Position numbers and translations under genes: made by a program
Assembly: GCF_018141425.1 (NCBI RefSeq)
Contig: NZ_CP058561.1
Location: 3,410,001-3,474,000 of the forward strand
DNA length: 64,000 nt
Direction: 5' to 3'
DNA from: Vallitalea guaymasensis
GTDB lineage: Bacteria > Bacillota > Clostridia > Lachnospirales > Vallitaleaceae
Notes under the pieces: model-generated
Databases searched by the model: none
What the model was told of the DNA's origin: nothing
What the model saw: the letters and a program-made list of their open reading frames with translations, nothing else
Shown: positions 27,721-61,214 of the stretch, piece by piece
Position numbering within the stretch: position 1 is the stretch's first letter
Layout: the number at the start of each line of letters is the position of its first letter

Positions 27721-27797
27721 ACTCATAAGGCTTATTTAGATATTATTATTAATAAACTATATATAAATAATGAGTTAAAGTAAGATATAAATACAGA

Positions 27798-27917
27798 GTG
27801 GAGATAGTTTAGGGGAATATGGAGCAGTGAGCCATGGACGGCGAACTCAGCAATTTAAACATGGACGTTTAATTTGCTGACGGAATATTCCCCTAAACTA
27901 ACTCCACGACCGTTAGC
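27798..27917. repeat. Nested palindromic element, core family copy 1
   Basis: Outer arms 27798-27820 and 27885-27907 pair over 23 nt with one mismatch. Inside are the core GTGAGCCATGGACGGCGAAC (27827-27846) and an inner hairpin 27847-27860 / 27867-27880 (7 bp, one T-T mismatch, 6 bp, loop ATGGAC). GACCGTTAGC (27908-27917) follows the base of the outer stem. No T-tract is present. The 60 nt at 27823-27882 recur exactly at 37509-37568. It lies between uvrC and hprK. Confidence 0.9.
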
Positions 27918-37372: not shown

Positions 37373-37483
37373 AAAACCTCATCCTTCTTTCTTCATTTAT
37401 TTTTCTTCAACCATATTTAAATTTTATTAAAATATATACTAGCCTGAACTAACAATCATTAAAGGTATGATTTAAATACCGAG

Positions 37484-37604
37484 CGTAGATAGTATAGGGG
37501 GAATATGTAGCAGTGAGCCATGGACGGCGAACTCAGCAATTTAAACATGGACGTTTAATTTGCTGACGAAATATTCCCCCTATACTATCTATGCGACCGT
37601 TAGC
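37484..37604. repeat. Nested palindromic element, core family copy 2
   Basis: Outer arms 37484-37506 and 37571-37593 pair over 23 nt with one wobble. The core (37513-37532) and inner hairpin (37533-37546 / 37553-37566) are identical to the copy at 27.8 kb over 60 nt (37509-37568). GACCGTTAGC (37595-37604) again follows the outer stem. It lies in the 255-nt gap between tdh and kbl. No T-tract. Confidence 0.9.
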
Positions 37605-58024: not shown

Positions 58025-58089
58025 GAACGTAGAACTTATTTTTATTTATTTGCAAAATAGGTTAATGGTAATTATAGTGCAAGACGGTC

Positions 58090-58298
58090 GTAGATGGAGG
58101 GATGGGTGCAATAAAGTAGTTCAGATTAAAGGAGCCTAAGAAAAGCTAAGGTTCGTTCCAGAGGTATTTCCTAAAGCTTACAAACTCCCTAGCGGTCAAA
58201 CAAGTAAGCTTCTTAACGGAAATACCTCTTCCACTCACCAAGCTTTTCTAAGGCTCCTTTAAAAGTCACATCTTTATTGCACACATCCCCCCATCTAC
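58090..58298. repeat. Four-tier nested palindrome after rbsK
   Basis: Arm pairs from outside in: 58090-58116 / 58272-58298 (27 nt, two mismatches), 58126-58147 / 58241-58262 (22 nt, one mismatch), 58160-58171 / 58218-58229 (perfect) and 58174-58181 / 58204-58211 (perfect). The loop is 58182-58203. GACGGTC just before the left arm is the complement of the GACCGT that follows the copies at 27.9 and 37.6 kb. No T-tract. It occupies much of the gene-free stretch 58025-58846. Confidence 0.9.
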
Positions 58299-58370
58299 TT
58301 GGCTCGTTCTGTGAAGCTTGAGGCTAGATTAATCAAGTAAGATGGTAATAGGAAATATAACAGTGGCAAG

Positions 58371-58609
58371 GTACTTTTGTAAATATAACCGAGAGCCTAG
58401 TAAATGCCATATCTGTAATCTTTCAATGGGGATAAGAAGGTAAGGTATTCTAGGTGTTACGTCAAGTGAACCATGGACGGTGAACGCCTTTCCTTTAATC
58501 AGGACGATTAACGGAAAGGAAAAGTAACACCTAGAATACCTTACAGAAGCCACTGGATATAAGGAAAGATTAGAGATATGGTATTTACGGAAGTACTGCA
58601 AAATTGTAC
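58371..58609 (+). repeat. Nested palindromic element, core family copy 3; left inverted repeat of island
   Basis: Tiers: 58402-58424 / 58564-58586 (two mismatches), 58440-58460 / 58524-58544 (21 bp, perfect), inner 58487-58500 / 58506-58519 (7 bp, mismatch, 6 bp; loop AGGAC). The core AGTGAACCATGGACGGTGAA starts at 58465. About 58371-58595 recurs in reverse at 60992-61214. GTAC occurs at both outer ends (58371-58374, 58606-58609). Confidence 0.9.
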
Positions 58610-58846: not shown

Positions 58847-59356
58847 TTAATCAAACTTATAATATTTTAACTTACTATAAAACTGTTCCTTTAACTCTCT
58901 AAACGAATATGGAGTAAAATTATCATTATGATATCTATCTTCTAACCACTTTTTTATTATGTTTAAATCATTAATGATATCATTAAATCTATTTTTATCT
59001 TTAATAGTCCCAGTTTTAATTAATTCAATATTATATTGTTTTAGAAGAGATATATATGTTTGATAAAATGTACCAATGAATATACTGTCACTTCTAAATA
59101 TATATGTGTAGGTAATATCAGCTACTTCTAATGCATCAATAATATTTTGTATTTTGATATATGAATCATCTTCTAATATTTTATCATCTTCTAATTCAGT
59201 AAGAAGATTCATGCTAAGTAGATGATCATTCATAATTATTATTTCTTCATTATTATTAGAATTTTCAACATTATGCAATTTAGTTCTAATTCCAATTATA
59301 TATAATAAAAGTATTATTATAATTGATATATACATATAAAAGTATTTTTTCTTCAT
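58847..59356 (-). CDS. Unrecognised membrane-anchored protein of the island
   Basis: 169 aa. I do not recognise a family. Residues 1-4 are basic and about 5-20 form a single hydrophobic helix, without a lipobox, so the protein is probably anchored with its bulk outside the cell. The remainder is Asn/Asp/Ile-rich and mostly helical (e.g. SYIKIQNIIDALEVADITYT; YQTYISLLKQYNIELIKTGT). A GGGAC-type ribosome binding site precedes the ATG. It lies 12 nt after the larger island gene and must be co-transcribed with it. Codon use is even more AT-biased than in the neighbouring salvage genes. Confidence 0.7.
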   Translation of the reverse strand: MKKKYFYMYISIIIILLLYIIGIRTKLHNVENSNNNEEIIIMNDHLLSMNLLTELEDDKILEDDSYIKIQNIIDALEVADITYTYIFRSDSIFIGTFYQTYISLLKQYNIELIKTGTIKDKNRFNDIINDLNIIKKWLEDRYHNDNFTPYSFRELKEQFYSKLKYYKFD

Positions 59357-59368
59357 AAAAGTCCCTCT

Positions 59369-60532
59369 CTATAAACACTCAAAAAATCCACTCTGAGAAC
59401 CTTCATTGTATTTTCTAATAGTTAGAGAATATTGATCATCTACCTTTGTTAAAGCATTTTTCATAGTTATCTTACAACCTCTAAGCTCATCGTCATCATC
59501 AAAAGTTTTATGTCCACTTGATTTAAATGTTGACGTATATGGTGTCCATGTAATTCCTGCACCAACTACTTTTCCAATCCATAATCCAGGACTTATTGAT
59601 AATCCACCTTCATCAGTGTGTACATCATATCCCCATTCAAATCTTCGAATTGTATCAATTGCTGCATTATAAGTATAAGTTTTAGAGACAAGTGCTGATT
59701 GGGCAAGACAATTATAGACTCCTAAAAAAGTTTTATCATACTCTTTACCATTGCAATAGTATTTTTGTTCTACCATTCTTAAATATGAATCATCTTCCTG
59801 AGTATCACTACCTTCATATGAATATACCGTTGATGACGCTTTAAGCTTAATTGTATATTTATAACAATCTTCTGGTCCATTATATAATATTGTGTCAAAA
59901 TATTCATCATCTTCAACTGGAGACATTTTGGTGAGTACTCTTTCATTTTTAACAGGTTTCAACGTTTTGATCCACCAATGCTCATCTTCAATATTTTCTA
60001 TCATCGGTACATTATAATTAGTTTTACTATTGTAATTATTAAGAACATGTAATGGTAATTCAAACATAAAAAATTCTCTTGTATCATTTTTCAATAAGTA
60101 TATCTGTAAGATATCACTATTATTTTCTGAATTATGTTTAGTAACAAAGCAGTTCTTATTCTTAGAATTTTTTATTGTAGATACAAAAACCACGTTAAAA
60201 TTATTGGATTTATCATATGGGTTGCTACCCACTAGCACCTCATCTAATGTTAAAGACTTCCTTAATTGTGTTTTTAGGTACAAGGGATAATTATTATTAT
60301 CATATGTTACTGTAGCGTGAATGCTTAAATCATTTTCTTCAATTTTTGTATCATTTATAGATATTTTTGCTTCTTGTAGATCCGACATCATATTAGATCC
60401 ATCATTATTAAGATTTAAGTTAACTGTACCTACATAATTGTTTGTTGCATTAGTAACCTCACTAAAAATTTGACAATATAAAACACTTACTAAACATATT
60501 GCAATAATTATTTTGATTTTATTTCTATTCAT
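59369..60532 (-). CDS. Unrecognised secreted protein of the island
   Basis: 387 aa. No family recognised. The N-terminal residues to about 29 (basic start, hydrophobic IIIAICLVSVLYCQIF, then a small-residue site near NATN) form a signal peptide. The mature part is Asn/Asp/Tyr-rich and beta-strand-like, with a YDVHTDEGGLSISPGLWIGK segment, an acidic KTFDDDDELRG and several cysteines (DCYKY, YYCNGK, NCLAQS, GCKI, ending ECL). It reads like a surface or exported binding protein. Its partner at 58847 carries a membrane anchor. Both genes sit between inverted copies of a palindromic element. Confidence 0.72.
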   Translation of the reverse strand: MNRNKIKIIIAICLVSVLYCQIFSEVTNATNNYVGTVNLNLNNDGSNMMSDLQEAKISINDTKIEENDLSIHATVTYDNNNYPLYLKTQLRKSLTLDEVLVGSNPYDKSNNFNVVFVSTIKNSKNKNCFVTKHNSENNSDILQIYLLKNDTREFFMFELPLHVLNNYNSKTNYNVPMIENIEDEHWWIKTLKPVKNERVLTKMSPVEDDEYFDTILYNGPEDCYKYTIKLKASSTVYSYEGSDTQEDDSYLRMVEQKYYCNGKEYDKTFLGVYNCLAQSALVSKTYTYNAAIDTIRRFEWGYDVHTDEGGLSISPGLWIGKVVGAGITWTPYTSTFKSSGHKTFDDDDELRGCKITMKNALTKVDDQYSLTIRKYNEGSQSGFFECL

Positions 60533-60991: not shown

Positions 60992-61214
60992 TACTTCCGT
61001 CAATACCATATCTCTAATCTTTCCTTAAGTCCAGTGGCTTCTGTAAGGTATTCTAGGTGTTACTTTCCTTTCCGTTAATCGTCCTGATTAAAGGAAAGCG
61101 TTCACCGTCCATGGTTTACTTAACGTAACACCTAGAGTACCTTACCTTCTTATCCTCATTCAAAATTAAAGAAATGACATTTACTAGGCTCTTGGTATTA
61201 GTTCACAATAGTAC
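60992..61214 (-). repeat. Nested palindromic element, core family copy 4; right inverted repeat of island
   Basis: The reverse complement matches 58371-58595 along nearly the full length. Middle arms are 61043-61063 / 61125-61145; the core (61099-61120, minus strand) differs from copy 3 by one base; the inner hairpin has the same geometry. The outermost tier has decayed relative to copy 3. Confidence 0.88.

What the first reader, a model, noticed from the sequence alone, without database searches (positions are those of the whole stretch)
27798..27917. A family of intergenic nested palindromes with a conserved core (four copies)
Elements at 27.8, 37.5, 58.4 and 61.1 kb share a core near GTGARCCATGGACGGYGAAC, always placed 5' of an inner hairpin with the same geometry: 7 bp, a single mismatch, 6 bp, then a 5-6 nt loop containing GGAC. 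A long perfect or near-perfect outer stem encloses both. No T-tract, no ORF. Copies 1 and 2 are identical over 60 nt although about 10 kb apart. This is not a terminator, a riboswitch class I know, or an insertion-sequence end I recognise. It could be a structured RNA, a non-autonomous mobile DNA or a recombination site.
Basis: seen in the sequence. Interest (0 to 1): 0.8.

Follow-up and report, generated by a model that had tools for sequence, protein, structure and literature searches.

The report
Dispersed CsrA-type hairpin RNA repeats
The four "nested palindromes" belong to a little-studied RNA family called TwoAYGGAY, here scattered in dozens of copies through a marine bacterium's genome, and each copy shows two hairpin loops that look suited to the regulatory protein CsrA, although that binding has not been tested.

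Summary
The four elements belong to a dispersed intergenic family with 88 covariance-model matches in this Vallitalea genome. Each folds as a long stem closing a three-way junction with two GGA-loop hairpins, one with tandem G·A pairs. Covariation is strong (31 of 42 pairs change on both sides). In 28 in-register pairs, 41 G·U against 4 A·C cells mark the GGA strand as the folding strand (71 against 43 over all pairs).

It is not a new class but a divergent branch of Rfam RF01731 TwoAYGGAY. Copies 1 and 2 score 37.5 and 38.9 bits, below the cut-off of 43; copies 3 and 4 do not match; a paralogue scores 46.1. CsrA binding was already predicted for TwoAYGGAY (PMC4333381).

New here: copy number, lineage-specific subfamilies, an outer helix and an insert, no conserved promoter, and co-occurrence with csrA (25 of 25 element-bearing genomes in the order sample, 49 of 51 in the phylum sample). 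Best reading: RNA docking sites for CsrA, spread as repeats. Binding and transcription are untested; recent insertion was not shown.

The parts
27798..27907 (+). Copy 1 (subfamily A), between uvrC and hprK, same direction as both. P1 arms 27798-27820 and 27885-27907; P2 27826-27847 with loop ATGGAC 27834-27839; P3 27848-27879 with loop ATGGAC 27861-27866
   Evidence: Fold; RF01731 37.5 bits, below cut-off 43; R1 match 27794-27906, 121.6 bits, copy in the training set; gene names
37483..37594 (+). Copy 2 (subfamily A), antisense to both neighbouring genes. P1 arms 37483-37506 and 37571-37594; P2 37512-37533 with loop ATGGAC 37520-37525; P3 37534-37565 with loop ATGGAC 37547-37552
   Evidence: Fold; RF01731 38.9 bits, below cut-off; R1 match 37479-37593, 117 bits, training copy
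58440..58544 (+). Copy 3 (subfamily B). P1 arms 58440-58460 and 58524-58544; P2 loop ATGGAC 58473-58478; P3 loop AGGAC 58501-58505
   Evidence: Fold; R1 match 58435-58544, 67.4 bits, not in training; no RF01731 match at E <= 10
58404..58586 (+). Further outer helix around copy 3, arms about 58404-58424 and 58564-58586 (read by eye)
   Evidence: Sequence; arms shared with copy 4 (inverted repeats I1, I2, I5)
61043..61150 (-). Copy 4 (subfamily B), inverted relative to copy 3; P2 loop ATGGAC, P3 loop AGGAC
   Evidence: Fold; R1 match 61043-61150, 62.6 bits, not in training; no RF01731 match at E <= 5

Best explanation
The elements are divergent members of the TwoAYGGAY RNA family (RF01731) that have multiplied into a dispersed intergenic repeat in Vallitalea. 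In the sense orientation each folds into a long stem capped by a three-way junction that presents two hairpins with GGA in the loop, 27 nt apart in copy 1. Inferred: a CsrA dimer docks on the two loops, so that each transcribed copy takes up CsrA as a decoy or brings the transcript that carries it under CsrA control. As no conserved promoter was seen, expression would come from read-through of neighbouring genes or from chance promoters, and many copies together would tune free CsrA beside the FliW protein switch. Shown: family, structure, folding strand, copy number and csrA co-occurrence. Inferred: transcription, CsrA binding and the decoy effect.
For: RF01731 is the best Rfam family for copies 1 and 2; a paralogue passes the cut-off (46.1) and R1, built without it, scores it highest of 55 matches. 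Covariation: 24 of 42 pairs in 22 own copies, 31 of 42 in 65 copies of six genomes. 41 G.U against 4 A.C in 28 in-register pairs. GGA in 65 of 65 P2 and 65 of 65 P3 loops, ANGGAN in 61 and 50 (P2 is partly selected by the search pattern). The CsrA literature gives RUACARGGAUGU with ANGGAN hexaloops and CAGGA(U/A/C)G repeats in CsrB (PMC7652899, passages); subfamily A P3 reads ACA(T/C)GGACGT and B/C loops read CAGGACG. One csrA beside fliW and flagellin. csrA present in 25 of 25 element-bearing genomes of 295 in the order (177 of 295 overall) and 49 of 51 of 398 in the phylum (285 of 398 overall). Prior prediction of CsrA binding: PMC4333381 (passages).
Against: No expression or binding data. 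csrA is common and genomes are related, so the co-occurrence is weak proof; two RF01731-positive genomes, G474 (94% complete) and G527 (75% complete), gave no csrA match. Orientation is only mildly sense-biased, 30 against 13, p 0.014; copy 2 is antisense to both neighbours. No conserved promoter and none above chance near copies 1 and 2. Most subfamily C copies, and P3 of subfamily B, have AGGAC pentaloops, not ANGGAN. Over all pairs of A3 the wobble bias is only 71 against 43. Copies are lost at many sites in G005, so single copies are dispensable. Very stable stems may not favour CsrA (SELEX hairpins were mostly short; PMC7652899).
Confidence: 0.55

Rival explanations
1. Selfish non-autonomous mobile DNA (REP- or MITE-like): a transposase recognises the hairpins, the elements spread as DNA, and any RNA role is incidental.
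For: 88, 67, 42, 34, 17 and 2 model matches in six Vallitalea genomes, lineage-specific subfamilies, about 28 near-identical C copies, tandem trio in G002, a 225-nt difference at the L004 site between this genome and G003.
Against: G.U-over-A.C bias on one strand; GGA loops and tandem G.A kept across families; no target duplication or terminal repeat seen beyond the stem (by eye); shared remnants in G005 show old insertions. Transposase genes were not searched.
Confidence: 0.25
2. A structured RNA that binds a protein or ligand other than CsrA (for example an RNA chaperone or ribosomal protein), with csrA co-occurrence reflecting motile Clostridia.
For: csrA is present in 177 of 295 and 285 of 398 sampled genomes anyway; tandem G.A and a rigid junction are more elaborate than CsrA needs; pentaloops in subfamilies B and C.
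Against: Paired GGA hairpin loops fit the published CsrA site and an earlier independent motif annotation.
Confidence: 0.15
3. Transcript-end or mRNA-stability hairpins acting only on neighbouring genes.
For: Mild excess of sense orientation (30 against 13 of 62 copies).
Against: 13 copies are antisense to both neighbours and 9 lie between divergent genes; a plain hairpin needs neither two GGA loops nor tandem G.A pairs.
Confidence: 0.05

Closest known systems
TwoAYGGAY RNA, Rfam RF01731, clan CL00106 (PMC2864571; CsrA prediction in PMC4333381)
   Same: Two hairpins with AYGGAY loops in subfamily A, tandem G.A in one of them, an enclosing stem, Clostridia; a paralogue in this genome passes the cut-off.
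   Different: Window copies score below the cut-off or not at all; subfamilies B and C have AGGAC pentaloops and an extra outer helix; a two-hairpin insert in some A copies; 88 model matches in one genome.
CsrB/CsrC and RsmX/Y/Z sRNAs
   Same: GGA in hairpin loops, matching CsrA consensus forms.
   Different: One junction with two loops instead of a string of many; no conserved promoter seen; many dispersed copies instead of one or a few genes.
REP/BIME elements and their RAYT transposases (abstract openings only, listing)
   Same: High-copy intergenic palindromes with lineage-specific families, sometimes clustered.
   Different: About 110-230 nt with a conserved three-way junction and GGA loops; wobble bias to one strand; no transposase sought.
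MITEs (listing; features recalled)
   Same: Non-coding, long inverted arms, dispersed.
   Different: No target duplication or parent transposon found; internal structure under covariation.

Membership tests
TwoAYGGAY (RF01731) | Two terminal loops AYGGAY | tested here: met
   Copies 1 and 2: ATGGAC in both loops. In A3, 59 of 65 P2 and 48 of 65 P3 loops are AYGGAY. P3 of copies 3 and 4 is AGGAC, so only one loop fits there.
TwoAYGGAY (RF01731) | Tandem G.A in one stem (named in PMC4333381) | tested here: met
   GA/GA in P2 is invariant in the 65 rows of A3; copy 4 reads AA/GA.
TwoAYGGAY (RF01731) | Enclosing stem with both hairpins at its junction | tested here: met
   Folds and pair counts.
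TwoAYGGAY (RF01731) | Curated gathering score 43 bits | tested here: inconclusive
   Window copies: 37.5, 38.9, no match, no match. Paralogue 2,049,148: 46.1. R1 overlaps RF01731 loci in G060 and G129.
CsrA-binding RNA | GGA in a hairpin loop, best ANGGAN closed by AC/GU | tested here: met
   Subfamily A P3 ACA(T/C)GGACGT; ANGGAN in 61 and 50 of 65 loops; B and C loops are CAGGACG pentaloops.
CsrA-binding RNA | Binds CsrA | not testable with these tools
   Needs a binding assay; csrA co-occurrence is indirect.
CsrB-type sponge sRNA | Own promoter and terminator | tested here: not met
   No conserved promoter in 74 of 81 aligned flanks; promoter-like sites at chance level and no terminator at copies 1 and 2.
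REP (RAYT-mobilised) | Cognate Y1 transposase in the genome | not tested
MITE | Target-site duplication and clean empty sites | tested here: inconclusive
   L004 differs from G003 by 225 nt without a visible duplication; G005 sites show remnants.

The most novel reading that the evidence does not exclude
TwoAYGGAY is a genome-wide, multiplying CsrA decoy: repeats that spread through intergenic DNA and, transcribed from many places, titrate CsrA or wire it to new transcripts. It would be an RNA antagonist of CsrA in a bacterium that also carries the FliW protein switch.
Probability: 0.3. Interest if true: 0.85.

Novelty: new variant of a known kind. Interest (0 to 1): 0.52.

Why it matters
In 2014 CsrA-sequestering sRNAs were described as identified only in Gammaproteobacteria, and TwoAYGGAY was proposed as a clostridial candidate (PMC4333381, passages). 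My searches of the held open-access library found no later test (subscription papers are mostly not held). The structure, strand bias, copy numbers and csrA co-occurrence reported here strengthen that proposal and make it testable in an environmental anaerobe. If right, they point to an unusual design: a regulator buffered by dozens of dispersed repeats instead of one sponge gene. The curated Rfam model also misses most copies here (one above the cut-off, where few candidates were scored, against 88 with R1), so the family is probably undercounted.

Tried and rejected
New RNA class: rejected by RF01731. Terminator: no terminator-like site at copies 1 and 2. Autonomous sRNA promoter: an apparent -10 box seen by eye did not hold in aligned flanks (74 of 81 flanks, seven own copies lacked an anchor). 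Recombination site: the A right end reads GTTAGC in many copies but differs in other subfamilies; not pursued. Fresh insertion with empty sites in G005: rejected where remnants remain (copy 2, L010, L021, L022, L221). R1 finds an element at 6 of 33 G005 loci and one truncated match in 21 G003 loci.

Distant exact-core matches (7 of 16 stretches, and L048): R1 matches only the P2 part in most, which the search pattern itself imposes; L036 (Mariprofundus) extends to P3 at 19.9 bits. None matches RF01731 at E <= 5. They were not counted as members; L036 remains open.

Errors and limits: one search compared P1 arms one base out of register; one search corrects it. A2 misaligned subfamily B and was not used for counts. 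A1 left out eight of 30 own copies (seven with the insert, plus L003). In searches over more than 40 genomes few candidates per genome are scored, so those copy numbers are floors. Fisher tests ignore phylogeny. csrA counts were read off the printed lists by handle. Palindrome-arm template switching could also produce paired changes. The neighbouring-gene calls are from simple ORF scans.

Full report
What is there. Each copy has a long outer stem (P1, 20-24 bp) closing a three-way junction with two hairpins. P2 is AGT-GA-GCC[ATGGAC]GGC-GA-ACT with tandem GA/GA in copies 1 and 2 (ACC/GGT in copies 3 and 4). P3 is two short helices around one mismatch, with loop ATGGAC (copies 1, 2) or AGGAC (copies 3, 4). 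Fold z-scores run from -7.5 to -9.7. Copies 3 and 4 (subfamily B) have a further outer helix and lie inverted around two genes without a Pfam match at E 0.001.

How far it extends. The window is 3,410,001-3,474,000 of a single-contig 5.63 Mb genome; the core has 32 matches there at up to one mismatch and 0 for the reversed control. Nine of 16 exact-core stretches in named genomes are from Vallitalea MAGs, so I take the organism to be Vallitalea. A covariance model, R1, from 65 copies in six genomes (A3) finds 88 matches in this genome and 67, 42, 34, 17 and 2 in five congeners at E <= 0.001. Among them is a subfamily C of 28 near-identical copies with an additional outer helix. Seven of the first 30 own copies carry a two-hairpin insert in P3.

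Identity. The gathering-level Rfam scan finds nothing in the window. At relaxed threshold RF01731 TwoAYGGAY is the best family for copies 1 and 2 (37.5 and 38.9 bits against 43); copy 3, two other B copies and two insert-bearing copies do not match, nor does copy 4. A paralogue at 2,049,148 scores 46.1, above the cut-off, and R1, built without it, scores it highest of 55 matches. R1 and RF01731 also overlap at loci in other families, for example G060:C9:106098 and G129:C14:42175. I file the elements as a divergent branch of TwoAYGGAY. PMC2864571 (one table passage) lists the motif as probably RNA and probably not cis-regulatory; Rfam labels it Cis-reg. PMC4333381 (passages) notes tandem GAs and predicts CsrA binding, validation then in progress. 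I found no later test in the held library. PMC11661157 (passages) calls the motif relatively unexplored.

RNA strand. In 22 own copies 24 of 42 pairs show changes on both sides. In 65 copies 31 of 42 do, with 92.2% of cells paired against at most 42.3% when partners are slid. Among 28 in-register pairs 41 cells are G·U and 4 A·C, in 15 and 4 columns; over all pairs, including frayed ends, 71 against 43. The strand with the GGA loops is thus the better folder, as expected for RNA. In 28 C copies P1 shows 7 compensated two-arm changes and 4 single ones; I read all four single ones as G·U on the sense strand.

Loops and CsrA. In A3 all 65 P2 and all 65 P3 loops contain GGA (P2 partly by selection); ANGGAN occurs in 61 and 50, the rest being AGGAC. 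Most C copies have AGGAC in both loops. PMC7652899 (passages) gives RUACARGGAUGU as the SELEX consensus, mostly in six-nucleotide loops closed by AC/GU, ANGGAN for RsmE, and CAGGA(U/A/C)G repeats in CsrB. P3 of subfamily A, ACA(T/C)GGACGT, and the B/C loops, CAGGACG, fit these. The genome has one csrA match beside fliW and flagellin. The flagellin leader has a hairpin with GGA in its loop and a GGAGG site, read by eye, but its fold is not unusual (z -0.36).

Co-occurrence. In 295 genomes of the order 21 match RF01731 and 15 match R1, 25 in union; all 25 are csrA-positive against 177 of 295 overall (Fisher 1.4e-6). In 398 genomes of the phylum 51 match RF01731 and 49 are csrA-positive, against 285 of 398 (Fisher 3.1e-6). 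The exceptions are G474 (94% complete) and G527 (75% complete, match at E 0.001). Among genomes at least 90% complete and at most 5% contaminated the values are 21 of 21 and 44 of 45. The samples share three element-bearing genomes, genomes are related, and csrA is common, so this is support and not proof.

Context and mobility. Of 62 own copies examined, 30 are sense to both neighbours, 13 antisense to both, 9 between divergent and 9 between convergent genes, and one lacks a left neighbour. The sense excess is mild (p 0.014). Only about 10 nt before P1 are conserved. In G005 (about 94% identical) several sites keep part of the element (copy 2, L010, L021, L022, L221) and copy 1's orthologue is a half element with the insert. 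That indicates presence in the common ancestor and later loss. R1 finds an element at 6 of 33 fetched G005 loci and only one truncated match in 21 G003 loci. At L004 the two genomes' flanks are 90% identical and this genome has 225 nt more, element included, with no visible duplication. Multiplication is clear from subfamilies and a tandem trio in G002; its mechanism is not.

Verdict. A real, strongly structured RNA repeat family, already catalogued as TwoAYGGAY but here in high copy and divergent form. The best reading is RNA docking sites for CsrA spread as repeats. Binding, transcription and the decoy effect remain to be tested.

Noticed in passing
58083-58312: A second, larger nested palindrome (X) without GGA loops, fold -106.4 kcal/mol, z -11.25, just upstream of copy 3; the same X-then-B order occurs at L025, so B may be part of a longer unit.
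   Followed up: partly
L001, L005, L006, L007, L009, L023, L027 (own copies) and L099 (G005 orthologue of copy 1): A two-hairpin insert inside P3, itself with paired changes; the G005 orthologue of copy 1 has it while this genome lacks it.
   Followed up: partly
L218-L245: 28 near-identical subfamily C copies whose 5' stretch before P1 varies in an oddly patterned way between copies.
   Followed up: no
58847-60532 (-): Two ORFs (169 and 387 aa) without Pfam match lie between the inverted B copies 3 and 4, a layout like a composite element.
   Followed up: no
L003 and L005: Two own copies share an identical, unrelated 5' flank that replaces the left half of the element, perhaps another mobile element joined to it.
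   Followed up: no
L036 3134-3183 (+), Mariprofundus erugo: Exact core followed by a second GGA-loop hairpin; weak R1 match, 19.9 bits, no RF01731 match.
   Followed up: partly
L105 (G002:C42:11500-14500): Three head-to-tail copies about 170 bp apart.
   Followed up: no
L247 1150-1345 (-): Flagellin leader beside csrA with a GGA-loop hairpin and a GGAGG ribosome site, as expected for a CsrA target.
   Followed up: partly
L054 978-1234 (-), congener G004: T-box leader above Rfam's cut-off, 106.8 bits.
   Followed up: no
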